From NCBI RefSeq assembly GCF_031458395.1, contig NZ_JAVDYJ010000001.1:186001-250000 (forward strand): a stretch of DNA of 64,000 bases, in the 5' to 3' direction. Shown here one piece after another: positions 14,516 to 20,118 of the stretch (position 1 is the first letter of the stretch; each line of letters starts with the position of its first letter). The notes beneath the pieces were generated by a model. The model saw only the letters and a list, made by a program, of their open reading frames with translations. It was not told the DNA's origin and did no database searches. The DNA is from Enteractinococcus fodinae (lineage in GTDB: Bacteria; Actinomycetota; Actinomycetes; Actinomycetales; Micrococcaceae). Made by a program: the position numbers and the translations under genes.

Positions 14516-14640
14516 GCTACTTCAGGTATCGTAGTGGAGTCACGATTCAACTAAAGGACATGTACCGAGCGTGCCGTCCAGGCTAACGTGATGATAGTGA
14601 TTGGCGAATCAACTCTTCCAAAAAACTAAGTGTGGGGTAC

Positions 14641-16302
14641 ATGGCACAGGACCTGAACCAGCTGGCGCAATGCATCGACGGCATTACTCAGCACTACCCT
14701 TTCGCGGTGCACTGGGATGTTCGCGAGATCGCCTCGGGGCAGCACATTAGCCAGGGTGGAGAGCAGGTCATCGGTGCCTTTAGCACCAGGAAAGTCAGTG
14801 TGCTGCTGGCATGTCTGGCGCTCGTGCATGTGCAGAAACTCTCCCTAGACGACACCTACCCCATTGATGCCTCACTCAAAGACGGGGTGCAAGCCGGGGT
14901 GATGCGCAATCTATCGGCCGGTATTGAGCTCAGCCTGCGAGATCATCTGGCGCAAATGATGATCACCTCCGACAACATCTGTACTCAACTCGTGTTCCGT
15001 GCCATGGAAGAAGCCACCGGGGATGCGCTGCAATGGGTCAACGACTATTGCGCACAACTGGGCATGTACCACACGCTGCATCGCGAGGTCTTCCCGCGGT
15101 CAGCTGAGCTGGCCTGGTCACATCCGATCGATGCTATGACGGTCACCTCGGCCACTGACCAAGCGCTCCTCTTAGAACACCTCGCCCACGGGGCCATGGA
15201 CGATGAGCACGCTAAGAAACTCCGCCTCACCACCGAACTGTGTCAGCTCGCGCTAGAGCTCATGAGCCATATCTACACCCCGCTATTGGGGGCTTATGTC
15301 ACCCAGGGCCGATTTGTTGAGAAGAACGGGCGGGGCATTCGTGGGCTCTCCCAGGTCGGGATCTTGCTAGATCACCAGAACCAACCGGTCGCCTCAGTCG
15401 CGGTATTTGCCGAATCGGTCCCGGTCGAGCTGTTTGATGGTACGCCAGGGCGGGTTCGGGCCATGGAATGTTTTGCCGCCATCGGTCAGGTCGTCGAACA
15501 GACCTTCCTAGACGGCACGCCGGTCCCCATCGTGCACCGGCAAGTCATCGAGTCTGACTTCTGGGAACAAGAACTTGGCGAACTGCTTTTTGCGGTGGAA
15601 GGCGGTCGTGCGGTCAATGCCGACGTCGAGTTCACCTTCTCAGGTATCGGCAAGATCTTCTTCGCCCAGGCCGTGGTCGAAGCAGCAGGTACGAATCCTG
15701 AGCTCTTACAGCGCGTCATCCCAATCCGTGCACAGCATCGCGAACACGCCGAGACCGGCACACTTCGGCATCTCCCGGGCGAGCTGAAACTCACAGTTGA
15801 TGACGCGATGCGGCTCGTCACCGGCTCGGGCGATGGAGCAGCAGTCCAAGCCCTCTTCGAGTATTTCGAGGCAGAGGGGATCGACATTCTCGAATGCGGC
15901 CGTCAAGCTGTTGCCCATCTCCCAAATACCACCATCACCGGCCTTGAAAAACTCTCCGCTGGTGAGGGATTCCACGGTGTGACGACCGCCAATGATGTTT
16001 TGGTGCTGCTACGTCAGATTATCAATGACGATGGGCCCGTGATGGAATGGATGTCCCAGGTCTTCGAGCCAGGTGGTTTGGCCAGCACACTGCCTGGCTA
16101 TGGACCCCACACCATCCAACACTGGACGGTAGCCGGATGGGAACGCATGTATGGATGCCGGCTCGACGAAGGTCGCAGCTCACTGATGATCCTGAAGTGT
16201 CCAAAAGGCTTTACCGGCATGGTTGCCCACGCTCCGATCGGAACTCACGACGTGCCCGCCAAATTCGGCAGCCTCGGATTATCTACCCTGGCCAACACCT
16301 AG
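14641..16302 (+). CDS. Tandem-duplicated class A beta-lactamase-fold protein
   Basis: 553-aa cytoplasmic-looking protein (no signal peptide) made of two homologous halves. Half 1 (about 1-290) has the full serine-hydrolase set: Ser48-x-x-Lys51, Ser110-Asp-Asn112 and Lys228-Asn-Gly230 in place of KTG. Half 2 (about 300-550) aligns at the same landmarks but is degraded: SGIGK (334-338), SGDG (396-399) and no KTG. Half 2 is therefore probably non-catalytic. The substrate is unknown. It ends 66 bp before the dehydrogenase of the pterin-like cluster. The ATG at 14641 is preferred over the GTG at 14632, though only a weak GTGGGG precedes it. Confidence 0.75.
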   Translation: MAQDLNQLAQCIDGITQHYPFAVHWDVREIASGQHISQGGEQVIGAFSTRKVSVLLACLALVHVQKLSLDDTYPIDASLKDGVQAGVMRNLSAGIELSLRDHLAQMMITSDNICTQLVFRAMEEATGDALQWVNDYCAQLGMYHTLHREVFPRSAELAWSHPIDAMTVTSATDQALLLEHLAHGAMDDEHAKKLRLTTELCQLALELMSHIYTPLLGAYVTQGRFVEKNGRGIRGLSQVGILLDHQNQPVASVAVFAESVPVELFDGTPGRVRAMECFAAIGQVVEQTFLDGTPVPIVHRQVIESDFWEQELGELLFAVEGGRAVNADVEFTFSGIGKIFFAQAVVEAAGTNPELLQRVIPIRAQHREHAETGTLRHLPGELKLTVDDAMRLVTGSGDGAAVQALFEYFEAEGIDILECGRQAVAHLPNTTITGLEKLSAGEGFHGVTTANDVLVLLRQIINDDGPVMEWMSQVFEPGGLASTLPGYGPHTIQHWTVAGWERMYGCRLDEGRSSLMILKCPKGFTGMVAHAPIGTHDVPAKFGSLGLSTLANT

Positions 16303-16368: not shown

Positions 16369-17373
16369 ATGGCCTGGCAATATTGGACGGAATCTCCACG
16401 TCAAGGACGATGGCGGCAAGTCGATACTCCAACCATCGACACCCAACATCAGGTGCGAATCCGCACCACAGCATCGGCCATATCCAAAGGCACCGAGACC
16501 TTAGTGCACAACGGCCAGGTGCCACCCAACATCGCCGCACTCATGCGAGCCCCGCACCAACTGGGTGATTTTTCCTATCCGGTTTCCTACGGGTATCTGG
16601 GCGTGGGCATCGTCGACCAAGGCCCCGACGAGTGGCTCGACAAACGAGTGTTCGGCCTGCTGCCGCACCACAGTCATCACGTGGTGGACCCCTCCGAGCT
16701 CCTAGTGATCCCCGATGAGATTTCGGATCACCGGGCACTGCTAACCGGTGCCGCAGAAACAGCCATCAACATCCTGTGGCAACAGCCTCCACGCTATGCG
16801 GATCGCATCGCGATTGTAGGGGCCGGCATGATTGGTGCCACCACGGCGCTGCTGGCCTCCAAATTTCCGCTAGAGCGTCTCGAAGTGCTTGAAACCAACC
16901 CGGCACGGCGCGAGTTGATCAGCAGCTGGGGCATCACCGCCGTAGCGCCCGAAGAGGCATCAGCCGACTGCGATCTCGCCATTCACGTCTCCGGTCACGA
17001 AGCAGGCCTGGCCAGAGCACTTGAGATCACCGGGGATGATGGCACCGTCATCGAAGCGTCTTGGTACGGTGAAAACGCACCCGCCGTCCCACTGGGCGCC
17101 GATTTTCACGCCCGTCGGCTCAACATTGTCGCGAGCCAGGTCGGCCAAGTTGCCGTTGGGCATCGGCACCGCCGGACCACGCAACAGCGTCAGCGAGCTG
17201 GGCTCGAGTCACTAACCGACCCACGATTTGAGAATCTCATCTCCGGGGTCTCTGCCTGGCACGAACTGCCCGCAGTCATGGACGCCGTGACCCAACCCGG
17301 TGAGTTTGCCGCCGCAACCTTATGCCATGTTTTTACCTACCACGACATAGAAAGAGGAATACCGGATGTTTAG
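16369..17373 (+). CDS. BchC-like medium-chain dehydrogenase (zinc ligands not evident)
   Basis: 334-aa MDR-superfamily oxidoreductase. ASAISKGTETLVHNGQVPP near the N-terminus, the YPVSYGYLGVG segment and the Rossmann motif GAGMIGA (about residue 148) are seen. The SKGTE and GDF-YPVSYGY pattern is that of the BchC-like branch; the catalytic Cys and GHE zinc ligands of classical alcohol dehydrogenases are not recognisable. It overlaps the PTPS-like gene by 8 bp, so the two are translationally coupled. A role in oxidising or reducing a side chain of a pterin or sugar-linked intermediate is inference. Confidence 0.75.
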   Translation: MAWQYWTESPRQGRWRQVDTPTIDTQHQVRIRTTASAISKGTETLVHNGQVPPNIAALMRAPHQLGDFSYPVSYGYLGVGIVDQGPDEWLDKRVFGLLPHHSHHVVDPSELLVIPDEISDHRALLTGAAETAINILWQQPPRYADRIAIVGAGMIGATTALLASKFPLERLEVLETNPARRELISSWGITAVAPEEASADCDLAIHVSGHEAGLARALEITGDDGTVIEASWYGENAPAVPLGADFHARRLNIVASQVGQVAVGHRHRRTTQQRQRAGLESLTDPRFENLISGVSAWHELPAVMDAVTQPGEFAAATLCHVFTYHDIERGIPDV

Positions 17374-17749
17374 TCTGACCGTCAACGACTACGTGATGAT
17401 TGCTCACAGCCTGCCCAACGAATTCTTCGGCCCGGCCCAACAATTGCACGGCGCCACCCTGACCGTGGAAGCGACCTTCACCCGGCCGCAACTCGATGAG
17501 CACTCCGTGGTTCTTGATATCGGACACGCCACCCAACTGCTAGATGATACACTCGAGCCGCTACGCTATGCCGATCTCGACTCGCACCCAGACTTCAAAG
17601 GACGGCTATCCACCTCGGAAGTCATCGCCCAGTATGTCGGCGATAAACTAGCTGACAACCTGGCAGATTTGCCCGAAGTCGGAGTATCGGTGACCATCCA
17701 CGAAAACCCGCGGGCTCGCGTGAGCTACACCGTGCCCGACCGTCAATAA
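17366..17749 (+). CDS. 6-pyruvoyl/6-carboxytetrahydropterin synthase-like protein (variant zinc site)
   Basis: 127-aa T-fold protein. His14 (IAHSLP) and His28 (QLHGATL) match two of the three zinc ligands of PTPS/QueD, but the third, the last His of the HGH motif, is Ala30, and the usual catalytic Cys between them is absent. VVLDIG and the later conserved ...DLDSHP (counterpart of the LDH motif) are present. The FGPAQxLHGAT wording resembles a subfamily that travels with a glycosyltransferase and a BchC-like dehydrogenase (recalled, not searched). The chemistry on a 7,8-dihydropterin is therefore uncertain. Ribosome site GAGGA lies inside the upstream gene. Confidence 0.75.
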   Translation: MFSLTVNDYVMIAHSLPNEFFGPAQQLHGATLTVEATFTRPQLDEHSVVLDIGHATQLLDDTLEPLRYADLDSHPDFKGRLSTSEVIAQYVGDKLADNLADLPEVGVSVTIHENPRARVSYTVPDRQ

Positions 17750-18726
17750 TGTTCCATCTGGTCGAACCGCAGCTTGGCAGAATCAGCGGAGGGTTACGCT
17801 ACAACCACGCCGTGATAGATGCCGCAGCCGGTAAGATTCAGCGTCACGAATTACCCGGCGCCTGGCCCCAGCCGACCCGAGCAGATGTGCAGGCCCTAAC
17901 CGACCTTCTGCGTCGGCTCGACGGACCCGTGTTGCTCGACGGTTTGATCGGGTGTGCTCTGGACGCACCCGTCTGCGCAGACGTGCCCATAGTTCAACTT
18001 GTGCACGCGCTGGCCGAATCCCCAACGGCCACCCGCCGCGAAGGGAACTGTCTGAAGGCAGCTGACGCGGTCGTGGCCACGAGCCACTTCGCAGCTGAGG
18101 CACTGCAAGAACGCCACGACATTGACGTGGTGGTGGCTGCCCCGGGAGTCGAACCCCGACCGGTGGCCACCGGCAGCAAGGGCCGCCATTTCATCAGTGT
18201 GGGCGGGATCGAACCCAATAAAAACCAGCGTTTCCTGGCACACGTGCTTGGACAACTCGATGCGCTGGGGTTCACCGCCTGGCACTGCACATTTGCCGGG
18301 CCAGCCACCGATGCCGCTTATGCCGCTGGCCTGCGCCGCGATCTGGCGCAACTGCCCGGATCGCGGACCACCCTGGCTGGTGAGTTAGATGCGGACGCGC
18401 TCGCAGCACTGTACGACACCGCTGACCTGTTGGTGTTCCCGTCGCGGGCTGAAACGTTTGGGCTCGTGGTTCGCGAAGCCACCGCAGCGGGGATCCCGGC
18501 TTTCGTTACCGCTGGGACCGGTGCTGAAGAGGCGCTCGGGGGTGGGGCCGCGCTGGCGCTCGAAGAGACCGCGTGGGTCGAAGCGCTACGACGGTGGCTG
18601 ACCGAGCCCAGCCTGCGCGAAACATTTCAGGCAGACGCGCGAGTGGCCCGCCAGCGCTTATCGTATGGCTGGCAGGCCACTGCAAACACCGTTCTGGACG
18701 TGTTGGAGTCCGTGCGCTCAGGCTGA
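17749..18726 (+). CDS. Family 4 glycosyltransferase
   Basis: 325-aa GT-B-fold glycosyltransferase. FISVGGIEPNKN starts the C-terminal nucleotide-sugar domain, and the EX7E motif is visible in SRAETFGLVVREA. No membrane segment or signal is apparent, so it probably acts on a soluble acceptor. The start overlaps the PTPS-like stop codon (TAATG). This coupling suggests that the product of the two preceding enzymes is glycosylated. It overlaps the convergent RibA-RibD fusion gene by 9 bp at the 3' ends. Confidence 0.85.
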   Translation: MFHLVEPQLGRISGGLRYNHAVIDAAAGKIQRHELPGAWPQPTRADVQALTDLLRRLDGPVLLDGLIGCALDAPVCADVPIVQLVHALAESPTATRREGNCLKAADAVVATSHFAAEALQERHDIDVVVAAPGVEPRPVATGSKGRHFISVGGIEPNKNQRFLAHVLGQLDALGFTAWHCTFAGPATDAAYAAGLRRDLAQLPGSRTTLAGELDADALAALYDTADLLVFPSRAETFGLVVREATAAGIPAFVTAGTGAEEALGGGAALALEETAWVEALRRWLTEPSLRETFQADARVARQRLSYGWQATANTVLDVLESVRSG

Positions 18727-20118
18727 AGGTTGAGCTTCGGCAACCACGTCCGCGTTCTGGACGCCGCGGAGTTGAGCGGGCATTTGCGCGGAGTGTTCCC
18801 GGGCTGCGGGGCTGAGCATGTACTCGGTGCAGACATCCTGCCCGAAAATGTAGCGCCGGAACGGGTACCGCAGGGCCTTGCTCATCTGCCCGGAGCCTTC
18901 GAACCGGATGCCGGGCACGCCGTCACCGATCAGCACCGGTGCTTTCGTCAGAAACAGGCGGTCTAACGCCTCGGCTGATAAGAACTCGGACACTGTCTGT
19001 CCGCCGCCTTCAATCAAGATCGAACCGGACACGTGCTTGCGAATCAGCGCAATCACCGCGTGCGGATCAATCTTGTCAGCAGATGATTGCGGCAGCTGGG
19101 CTACGGTGACGTGGTCAGCCAGTTGCTCGTTGATCTGCACATCAGCGCCGACCAACCATAAAGTTGGCGCATCGTCGGACTGCAGCACGGTGGAGTCCCG
19201 TGGCACGCGTGCGCGGGGATCAAGAACTACGCGCACTGGGTTCTCACCTTCCACTGCCCGCACCGTCAGCTGCGGATTATCTGCCGCGACGGTGCCGACA
19301 CCGACCAGGACAGCGCCCACTGCTGCACGCATACAATGCAGGTGACGACGATCGAGCTCACCCGAGACGAACTCGGCATCCCCGGTGCGGGCAGCAATAA
19401 AGCCGTCTTCGCTTTGGGCCAGTTGCGCGATGACTTCATCGTGGGTCGCAATGGTCTTGTAGACATCCAGTTCCAGAGAATGATCCAACTCCGGATGCCC
19501 GTTGGGCACGTCGTGGTTCATCCGCTGGCGTTTGCTCTGCAAATAGGCGCTGTTTTCGGGCCGATCGGGCAGTTGCAAATTGAGGCGCTGCACGACGGTA
19601 ATGCCGTGTTCGGTCAGCGCATCTGACTTGGCAGGATTCGAAGATAATAACCGGATACGCTGGGTGCCCAGGTGCCGAAGCATTTCGGCTGCGACTCGAT
19701 AGTCCCTGGCGTCATCCGGCAGCCCGAGTGCACGATTCGCTTCGACGGTATCCAACCCTTCGGTATCCTGCAGTGCGTAGGCCCGAAGCTTATTATCCAA
19801 CCCGATGCCCCGGCCCTCTTGGCCACGCAAATACAACAAGATGCCAGCACCCGCCGAAGAAATAGCCTGCAGCGCTGCCTCCAGCTGATCACCGCAGTCG
19901 CACCGATGTGAACCCAGCACATCTCCGGTGAGGCATTCGCTGTGCATCCGCACAAGCGGTGCATCAGAGCTAGCAGGATCACCCATCGTCATCGCAACAT
20001 GAGTGACCCCGTTGAATGTATAGGCACGTAACGTGAAGGTGCCGTGATCGGTTGGAAGTGAACTTGGCGGTCCAACCATCAGTTCCGCGCTCGTGTTATC
20101 AGTCTGCTGTAGGTCCAT
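18718..20118 (-). CDS. GTP cyclohydrolase II fused to RibD-type reductase domain
   Basis: 466-aa fusion. Residues about 25-200 are RibA: zinc-binding Cys set CLTGDVLGSHRCDCG and the active-site segment RGQEGRGIGL. Residues about 230-440 are the RibD C-terminal (DHFR-like) reductase: ARTGDAEFVSG, VLVGVGTVAADNP and IEGGGQT. The RibB and RibD-deaminase domains of ordinary riboflavin enzymes are absent. It would open GTP to the ribosylaminopyrimidine and reduce the ribose. It converges on the glycosyltransferase gene, so it is not in the same operon, but its content suggests supply of the same pathway. It may equally be a plain riboflavin gene. Confidence 0.85.
   Translation of the reverse strand: MDLQQTDNTSAELMVGPPSSLPTDHGTFTLRAYTFNGVTHVAMTMGDPASSDAPLVRMHSECLTGDVLGSHRCDCGDQLEAALQAISSAGAGILLYLRGQEGRGIGLDNKLRAYALQDTEGLDTVEANRALGLPDDARDYRVAAEMLRHLGTQRIRLLSSNPAKSDALTEHGITVVQRLNLQLPDRPENSAYLQSKRQRMNHDVPNGHPELDHSLELDVYKTIATHDEVIAQLAQSEDGFIAARTGDAEFVSGELDRRHLHCMRAAVGAVLVGVGTVAADNPQLTVRAVEGENPVRVVLDPRARVPRDSTVLQSDDAPTLWLVGADVQINEQLADHVTVAQLPQSSADKIDPHAVIALIRKHVSGSILIEGGGQTVSEFLSAEALDRLFLTKAPVLIGDGVPGIRFEGSGQMSKALRYPFRRYIFGQDVCTEYMLSPAAREHSAQMPAQLRGVQNADVVAEAQPSA

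What the first reader, a model, noticed from the sequence alone, without database searches (positions are those of the whole stretch)
16369..20118. Compact cluster for a possible glycosylated pterin or flavin-precursor metabolite
A BchC-like dehydrogenase, a PTPS-like protein and a GT4 glycosyltransferase overlap each other (8 bp and 1 bp), and a convergent GTP cyclohydrolase II-RibD reductase fusion lies at their tail. Pterin-synthase-like and GTP cyclohydrolase genes next to a soluble glycosyltransferase suggest a GTP-derived ring that is modified and glycosylated. I know of similar gene associations but not of a defined product.
Basis: partly seen in the sequence, partly recalled or inferred. 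Interest (0 to 1): 0.8.

Follow-up and report, generated by a model that had tools for sequence, protein, structure and literature searches.

The report
Conserved cluster for GTP-derived glycosylated metabolite
A compact set of genes, kept together in many distantly related bacteria, probably makes an unknown sugar-tagged compound from GTP by reworking riboflavin and pterin enzymes; its product is not known.

Summary
In detail: dehydrogenase, PTPS-like and GT4 genes overlap by 8 and 1 bp, with a convergent RibA-RibD_C fusion. The genome has a separate ribD-ribE-ribBA-ribH operon. In 80 named loci fetched with the PTPS-like protein alone, within 8 kb lie the dehydrogenase in 77, a GT in 76, RibD_C in 56 and GCHII in 34, in four phyla. 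Thirteen Cys-type PTPS loci have neither dehydrogenase nor GT. The PTPS belongs to the family of S. coelicolor SCO6650 (PDB 3d7j); it lacks the catalytic Cys and one zinc His but keeps the Glu that anchors pterins. The RibD_C domain lacks the Lys that selects the deaminated riboflavin intermediate. Best reading: GTP becomes an undeaminated ribitylaminopyrimidine, modified by dehydrogenase and PTPS-like protein, then glycosylated. More than half of the related loci add a methyltransferase or membrane enzymes; this lineage has only the core. No activity or product is shown. Two parts were known as orphans; nine paper searches found no description of the whole.

The parts
16369..17373 (+). Medium-chain dehydrogenase/reductase (DH), remotely like BchC; 334 aa
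   Evidence: DH within 8 kb of the PTPS gene in 77 of 80 loci
17366..17749 (+). PTPS-like T-fold protein of the SCO6650 family, Cys-less, HGA in place of HGH; 127 aa
17749..18726 (+). GT4 glycosyltransferase, 325 aa
   Evidence: GT within 8 kb in 76 of 80 loci
18718..20118 (-). RibA-RibD_C fusion protein, 466 aa, convergent with the GT gene
   Evidence: the same fusion in 11 of 80 related loci
19582..20061 (-). GTP cyclohydrolase II domain (Pfam stretch, residues 20-179); zinc motif CLTGDVLGSHRCDC and Tyr at the position recalled to decide APy or FAPy
18892..19434 (-). RibD_C reductase domain (Pfam stretch, residues 229-409); Gln aligned with B. subtilis RibG Lys151

Best explanation
The four genes are the minimal form of a widespread, dedicated pathway that turns GTP into a glycosylated 2-amino-4-oxo-pyrimidine or pterin, separate from riboflavin synthesis. 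Step 1 (domain and residue evidence): the GCHII domain opens GTP to 2,5-diamino-6-ribosylamino-4(3H)-pyrimidinone 5'-phosphate (APy). Step 2 (residue evidence): the RibD_C domain reduces the ribosyl to ribityl without prior deamination, as archaeal and fungal enzymes do. Step 3 (inferred): the dehydrogenase oxidises a hydroxyl, most likely on the ribityl chain, where a 2'-ketone would equal the Amadori intermediate of the GTP cyclohydrolase I reaction (recalled chemistry). Step 4 (inferred): the PTPS-like T-fold protein binds the 2-amino-4-oxo ring through its kept Glu residues and guides ring closure or side-chain rearrangement without the PTPS Cys and full zinc site. Step 5 (inferred from family): the GT4 adds a sugar from a nucleotide-sugar donor. 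In many other lineages a methyltransferase, a CDP-alcohol phosphotransferase, an LPG_synthase_TM protein and a sulfatase-fold membrane protein act afterwards, suggesting methylation and attachment to, or export across, the membrane. Sub-estimates: dedicated GTP-derived pathway distinct from riboflavin 0.85; undeaminated ribityl intermediate 0.6; glycosylated small-molecule end product 0.65; ring closed to a pterin 0.4.
For: Linkage in 80 loci: DH 77, GT 76 (68 at 170 bits or more), RibD_C 56, MT 54 (51 at 200 bits or more), CDP-alcohol phosphotransferase 52, GCHII 34, LPG_synthase_TM 32, sulfatase-fold 25, over Actinomycetota, Pseudomonadota, Acidobacteriota and Bacteroidota. Control: of 25 further PTPS-family loci, 13 Cys-type have 0 DH and 0 GT; 11 FGPA-type and 1 odd one all have DH, GT and RibD_C. 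Separate riboflavin operon. Reductase: best solved match 6p8c, annotated as the 2,5-diamino-6-ribosylamino-4(3H)-pyrimidinone 5'-phosphate reductase; Lys absent in 66 of 70 cluster copies (1 Lys, 3 unreadable) and present in the own canonical RibD; T35K in yeast RIB7 shifts preference to the deaminated substrate (PMC3631187, passages). PTPS: Cys, HGH and triad lost, Glu85 and Glu113 invariant. GCHII: Tyr in the window; Met in all 6 clean RibA reads that stand beside a creatininase and no RibD_C, fitting a two-enzyme route to the same APy, since a creatininase-family protein deformylates FAPy phosphate (PMC9478397, passages). The GT model matches GT4s with small acceptors, among them a tetrahydrobiopterin glucosyltransferase. 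In 7 loci (L064 and 6 Microbacterium) a neighbour family lies close by, one member of which has a pterin carbinolamine dehydratase domain.
Against: No product or activity is shown. Five Streptomyces-like clusters and Actinophytocola (L100) lack RibD_C within 8 kb, so ribityl reduction may not be universal, or is supplied elsewhere. 24 of 80 loci lack RibD_C and 46 lack GCHII nearby (some loci are cut by contig ends). Nesterenkonia loci (9 of the 80) and L037, from a genome of the window's own family, have neither. L150 has a RibA-RibD_C fusion with the canonical Lys. RibD_C in the clusters comes in Q, H and S types, which could mean different substrates. L069 and L124 have a creatininase although GCHII has Tyr, and which creatininase clade these belong to was not tested. 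The tetrahydrobiopterin glucosyltransferase is not the best GT match (MshA, BshA and SenB score as well or better). Steps 3 to 5 rest on family and fold alone.
Confidence: 0.6

Rival explanations
1. A vicine-like route: the APy pyrimidine is never closed to a pterin; the ring is trimmed and glycosylated to a pyrimidine glycoside, and the PTPS-like protein is a pyrimidine-binding lyase or isomerase.
For: GCHII feeds the vicine/convicine pathway in faba bean (PMC12202586, passages; that vicine is a pyrimidine glucoside is recalled); a GT4 gene follows directly.
Against: The ribityl-type reductase and the polyol-DH-like dehydrogenase would have no clear use if the side chain is removed; a T-fold pterin binder is kept throughout; in 7 loci a neighbour family lies close by, one member of which has a pterin dehydratase domain.
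Confidence: 0.2
2. A riboflavin side branch: the fusion is spare riboflavin capacity and the other three genes are accidental neighbours.
For: RibA and RibD_C domains are true members by score.
Against: Riboflavin operon elsewhere; only GCHII and RibD_C domains were found in the fusion, no deaminase or DHBP synthase; reductase Lys absent; the neighbours recur in four phyla.
Confidence: 0.04
3. A deazapurine (queuosine or toyocamycin-type) pathway with a QueD-like enzyme.
For: PTPS fold shared with QueD.
Against: QueD model 26.7 bits against a cut-off of 89.25; catalytic Cys and one zinc His missing; the linked cyclohydrolase is GCHII; none of the neighbour families that I named by Pfam is QueC or QueE, but not every recurrent family was named.
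Confidence: 0.04
4. The core makes a small redox cofactor or UV-absorbing glycoside that stays in the cytoplasm, and the membrane genes of other lineages belong to an unrelated lipid pathway that merely sits next door.
For: Three genomes of this lineage carry the core, with no relative of the Yaniella methyltransferase, LPG_synthase_TM or CDP-alcohol phosphotransferase found anywhere, while both Brevibacterium control genomes have them; 11 of 80 loci and all 12 cluster-type control loci show none of the accessory families nearby, although profiles trained on nearer relatives may miss distant ones.
Against: The CDP-alcohol phosphotransferase is near in 52 of 80 loci and in four phyla; no formal null was computed for it.
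Confidence: 0.25

Closest known systems
Streptomyces coelicolor SCO6650-SCO6655 region (SCO6650 solved as PDB 3d7j, seen; that SCO6655 makes FAPy and that SCO6650 has no zinc or PTPS activity is recalled from Spoonamore, Bandarian and co-workers, not read)
   Same: PTPS of the same family (E 3e-29); Streptomyces-like loci have DH-PTPS-GT in the same order
   Different: The window has Tyr not Met in GCHII, a RibD_C fusion and no creatininase nearby; methyltransferase and membrane genes not found in its genome
Canonical PTPS / QueD
   Same: Fold, two of the three zinc His, and the Glu recalled to anchor pterins
   Different: Catalytic Cys, the Asp-His pair and the third zinc His are lost
Archaeal/fungal 2,5-diamino-6-ribosylamino-pyrimidinone phosphate reductase
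   Same: Best solved match of the RibD_C domain (6p8c); no Lys at the selecting position
   Different: Fused to GCHII and linked to DH, PTPS-like and GT; the residue is Gln, where archaea have Asn and fungi Thr
Tetrahydrobiopterin glucosyltransferase (GT4, Pseudanabaena)
   Same: Same fold, Z 27.9, rmsd 3.0 over 305 residues (9v0l); shows that a GT4 enzyme can glycosylate a pterin
   Different: Only one of many equal or better GT4 matches; 15% identity
Vicine biosynthesis of faba bean
   Same: GCHII product diverted to a non-riboflavin compound (PMC12202586, passages)
   Different: No PTPS-like protein or reductase is described in the passages seen

Membership tests
SCO6650-type PTPS-like cluster | FGPAQ-x-LHGAT motif, no Cys, invariant Glu near the C-terminus | tested here: met
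   F21 G22 P23 A24 Q25 H28 G29 A30 T31 E113 invariant in 19 sequences; 3d7j E 3e-29
SCO6650-type PTPS-like cluster | Linked dehydrogenase and GT4 | tested here: met
SCO6650-type PTPS-like cluster | Met-type GCHII with creatininase, as in Streptomyces-like loci | tested here: not met
   window has Tyr, no creatininase within 8 kb, RibD_C present; so the window is a variant
Canonical PTPS/QueD | Catalytic Cys and three zinc His | tested here: not met
   NCBIfam QueD 26.7 bits, cut-off 89.25
Riboflavin pathway enzymes | Deaminase domain with the RibD reductase and Lys at RibG position 151 | tested here: not met
BchC | Score above the curated BchC cut-off | tested here: not met
   49.2 bits, cut-off 291.25
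GT4 glycosyltransferases | Pfam Glycos_transf_1 above cut-off and GT-B fold | tested here: met
   69.3 bits, cut-off 26.4; model pLDDT 95.9 matches MshA at Z 30.8, rmsd 2.6 over 314 residues
Pterin glucosyltransferase (BGluT) | Specific relation to BGluT above other GT4s | tested here: inconclusive
   matched, but ranked below MshA, BshA and others
Pterin glucosyltransferase (BGluT) | Transfer of sugar to a pterin | not testable with these tools
   needs an enzyme assay
GTP cyclohydrolase II | Family score and zinc-binding Cys motif | tested here: met
   PF00925 210.7 bits; CLTGDVLGSHRCDC
GTP cyclohydrolase II | Activity on GTP | not testable with these tools
   needs an enzyme assay

The most novel reading that the evidence does not exclude
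A GTP cyclohydrolase I-independent route to a neopterin-type pterin: GCHII opens GTP, RibD_C reduces the ribosyl, the dehydrogenase re-oxidises C2' and the Cys-less PTPS-like protein closes the ring; the pterin is glycosylated and, in many lineages, methylated and joined through a CDP-alcohol phosphotransferase to a lipid, giving a hitherto unknown membrane-anchored pterin glycolipid in at least four phyla.
Probability: 0.15. Interest if true: 0.9.

Novelty: new variant of a known kind. Interest (0 to 1): 0.62.

Why it matters
Two proteins of this system have, as far as I recall, been orphans since the S. coelicolor work: a PTPS without its catalytic residues and a GCHII that stops early. The conservation shown here says that they serve one common pathway in unrelated bacteria, with an unknown product. 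The compact window version has only five activities in four genes, which makes reconstitution practical. If a glycosylated or lipid-linked pterin or pyrimidine emerges, it would be a new class of bacterial metabolite, and it could explain some of the extra riboflavin-type genes in bacterial genomes. Ribityl-pyrimidine chemistry also lies close to the precursors of MAIT-cell ligands (title and start of abstract of PMC12240317).

Tried and rejected
Riboflavin redundancy was rejected on the separate operon and residue evidence. BchC identity was rejected on score. Queuosine-type function was rejected on the missing catalytic residues. Chance neighbourhood was rejected by the 80 loci and the Cys-type control. 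The c4 group first merged two families; it was split into CDP-alcohol phosphotransferase and a sulfatase-fold protein after finding natural fusions. A motif-based reading of the reductase residue gave wrong readings for L107 and L081 and none for three loci; it was replaced by a profile alignment. Own-genome searches for the accessory genes without a positive control were repeated with two Brevibacterium genomes as control. Paper searches listed no paper whose title or abstract start describes the cluster; most subscription journals are not in that library. The GT donor sugar cannot be told from the structure matches. A promoter and terminator scan gave no more than shuffles explain.
Full report
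What is there. The window (G000:C1:186001-250000 of a 2.93 Mb single contig) holds three overlapping plus-strand genes and one convergent minus-strand gene exactly as described: dehydrogenase 16369-17373, PTPS-like 17366-17749, GT4 17749-18726, RibA-RibD_C 18718-20118. Pfam and NCBIfam support PTPS, GT4, GTP cyclohydrolase II and RibD_C; the dehydrogenase matches no Pfam model at E 0.001 and only weakly BchC. The nearest named relatives are in Enteractinococcus and Yaniella (PTPS 90, 87 and 80% identity).

Is it a separate pathway? The same genome has ribD, ribE, ribBA and ribH in a row near 1.665 Mb; the lumazine-binding and lumazine-synthase domains of ribE and ribH were confirmed with Pfam. 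There are eight RibD_C matches in the genome, the fusion and RibD included.

Does it recur? The PTPS-like protein alone was used to fetch 80 named loci (the best 80 of 113). With profiles built from those loci, the window and the 12 loci L037-L048, within 8 kb of the PTPS gene: DH 77, GT 76, RibD_C 56, methyltransferase 54, GCHII 34, LPG_synthase_TM 32, creatininase 4 of 80 (recounted); after splitting a mixed family, CDP-alcohol phosphotransferase 52 and a sulfatase-fold membrane protein 25 of 80. Weak rows are included: 8 of the 76 GTs score under 170 bits (five are Nesterenkonia genes about 3 kb upstream) and 3 of the 54 methyltransferases under 200. The loci without DH are L078, L084 and L096; those without GT are L087, L099, L106 and L110; some loci are cut by contig ends. 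By phylum, assigned by me from record titles, the DH-PTPS-GT trio stands in 47 of 48 Actinomycetota, 22 of 25 Pseudomonadota, 2 of 2 Acidobacteriota and 2 of 5 Bacteroidota loci. Related species make up much of the list, so these are not independent counts. The RibA-RibD_C fusion of the window occurs in 11 of the 80. Pfam names of accessory families come; not every recurrent family was named. The CDP-alcohol phosphotransferase and sulfatase-fold protein are one protein in L083, L092 and L100, and probably in L114.

Control. From the phylum search (48 of 236 genomes with a match) I fetched 20 further regions and added the five distant ones already held (L044-L048). Of these 25, thirteen have the Cys-type PTPS motif; none has the DH or GT, and two (L143, L048) have RibA and RibD_C more than 5 kb away. 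Eleven have FGPA in place of the Cys but keep HGH; all eleven have DH, GT and RibD_C, with L139 showing only a weak GT where its contig ends. One odd locus (L150) also has all of them. L044-L048 had been among the loci used for the profiles, so they are not independent. The Cys loss and the gene cluster thus go together, and HGH to HGA looks like a later step (inference). None of the 25 shows the methyltransferase, LPG_synthase_TM, CDP-alcohol phosphotransferase, sulfatase-fold or creatininase profiles, though such profiles could miss distant relatives.

PTPS-like protein. In 19 aligned members His14 and His28 are invariant, the place of the third zinc His is Ala30, the Cys place is Ala24, and Glu85 and Glu113 are invariant (which residues bind zinc and pterin in PTPS is recalled). 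The HMMER alignments put Tyr and a variable residue where PTPS has its His and Asp. The closest solved structure is 3d7j, SCO6650. From memory, the authors of that structure reported no zinc, no catalytic triad and no PTPS activity but a pterin-like pocket; that paper is not held.

Cyclohydrolase and reductase. From memory, SCO6655 makes the formylated intermediate FAPy and a Tyr/Met exchange decides this. In the clusters Tyr is found in 33 of 41 RibA reads, the window included. Met is found in 6, all beside a creatininase and without RibD_C; two reads (L086 His, L105 Leu) come from poor ORFs without the zinc motif (the motif pattern also failed in L087, a Tyr read). Two loci (L069, L124) have Tyr with both creatininase and RibD_C (leaving out the own RibBA and L048). 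A Fisher test gave p 1.2e-5 with the two poor reads included, but the loci are related, so this is only indicative. A creatininase-family protein was shown to deformylate FAPy phosphate (PMC9478397, passages); whether the cluster creatininases belong to its clade was not tested. Both cluster types can be read as routes to APy. The RibD_C domain is closest to 6p8c, a reductase annotated for the undeaminated substrate. The residue aligned with RibG Lys151 is Gln in the window and Q, H or S in 66 of 70 cluster copies (window, 80-locus set, L037-L046 and the cluster-type control loci), Lys in one (L150), unreadable in three; the own canonical RibD and the RibD_C copies several kb from two Cys-type PTPS genes (L143, L048) have Lys. 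The yeast RIB7 T35K experiment supports this residue as a selector (PMC3631187, passages).

Dehydrogenase and GT. AlphaFold models have mean pLDDT 92.0 and 95.9. The dehydrogenase matches medium-chain dehydrogenases, polyol enzymes among the best (sorbitol, xylitol, arabinitol, idonate; Z 29-30 over about 290 residues). The whole superfamily scores close, so this is only suggestive. No Cys is invariant in 24 members. The GT best matches MshA, HepE and BshA, with SenB and a tetrahydrobiopterin glucosyltransferase also listed (Z 30.8 to 27.9). By profile, UDP-glucose:tetrahydrobiopterin glucosyltransferase matches at 5e-14, well below MshA at 2e-39.

Minimal form. Yaniella (L052) has methyltransferase and LPG_synthase_TM genes between the GT and the fusion, and the CDP-alcohol phosphotransferase gene beyond the fusion. 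Relatives of these were found in both Brevibacterium control genomes but not in the window genome or in the two Enteractinococcus genomes. The window therefore carries the smallest version: five activities in four genes. Eleven of the 80 loci show no accessory gene nearby, 53 have at least one of the three membrane families.

Expression hints. SCO6655 is listed among genes anticorrelated with predicted riboflavin flux (-0.61), but so is SCO2687, another GCHII (-0.52) (PMC2853524, passage); SCO6652 is listed in a table comparing mycelium stages (PMC3610822, passage). Neither decides anything.

Interpretation. The most economical reading is a dedicated branch from GTP through APy and its ribityl form, changed by the dehydrogenase and the PTPS-like protein, and glycosylated; elsewhere often methylated and perhaps joined to a lipid or exported. 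Domain assignments and residue patterns are shown; the order and chemistry of the last three steps are inferred. In print: the searches listed no paper on the cluster as far as titles and abstract starts show. A 2026 review of bacterial pterins mentions cyanobacterial pterin glycosides, and the terms Streptomyces, GTP cyclohydrolase II and PTPS do not occur in it (PMC13259868, term counts and passages).

Noticed in passing
window 14632-16302: 556-aa protein with two Beta-lactamase2 stretches directly upstream; a homologue lies upstream of the cluster in both Enteractinococcus loci L050 and L051.
   Followed up: partly
L083 6546-8960, L092 6644-9010, L100 13879-16320, L114 2985-6122: CDP-alcohol phosphotransferase joined to a sulfatase-fold membrane domain; separate genes in other loci.
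   Followed up: partly
L133-L136, L138-L140, L145, L044-L046: PTPS with FGPA in place of the Cys but HGH kept, in all 11 cases with RibD_C, DH and GT: an apparent evolutionary intermediate.
   Followed up: yes
L068 16111-17553 (family also in L064, L070, L071, L077, L082, L093): Protein with alpha/beta hydrolase, pterin carbinolamine dehydratase (31.9 bits, cut-off 26) and glyoxalase-like domains near the cluster in 7 loci; only the L068 member was scanned.
   Followed up: partly
L150: RibA-RibD_C fusion with canonical Lys beside a very divergent PTPS (GQLHHHD), DH and GT.
   Followed up: partly
L056-L063, L065: Nesterenkonia clusters have DH, PTPS, extra GT genes in most and a CDP-alcohol phosphotransferase, but no RibA or RibD_C within 8 kb.
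   Followed up: no
L106 8116-16020: Halochromatium: a methyltransferase of a family whose L099 member is FkbM-type, DH and PTPS, without GT or Rib genes within 8 kb, stand beside genes that read like magnesium chelatase subunits (that label by eye, not tested).
   Followed up: no
L069, L124: Creatininase present although GCHII has Tyr and RibD_C is present, so its role there is unclear.
   Followed up: no
G000:C1 (own genome): Eight RibD_C matches in one genome, several of unknown use.
   Followed up: no
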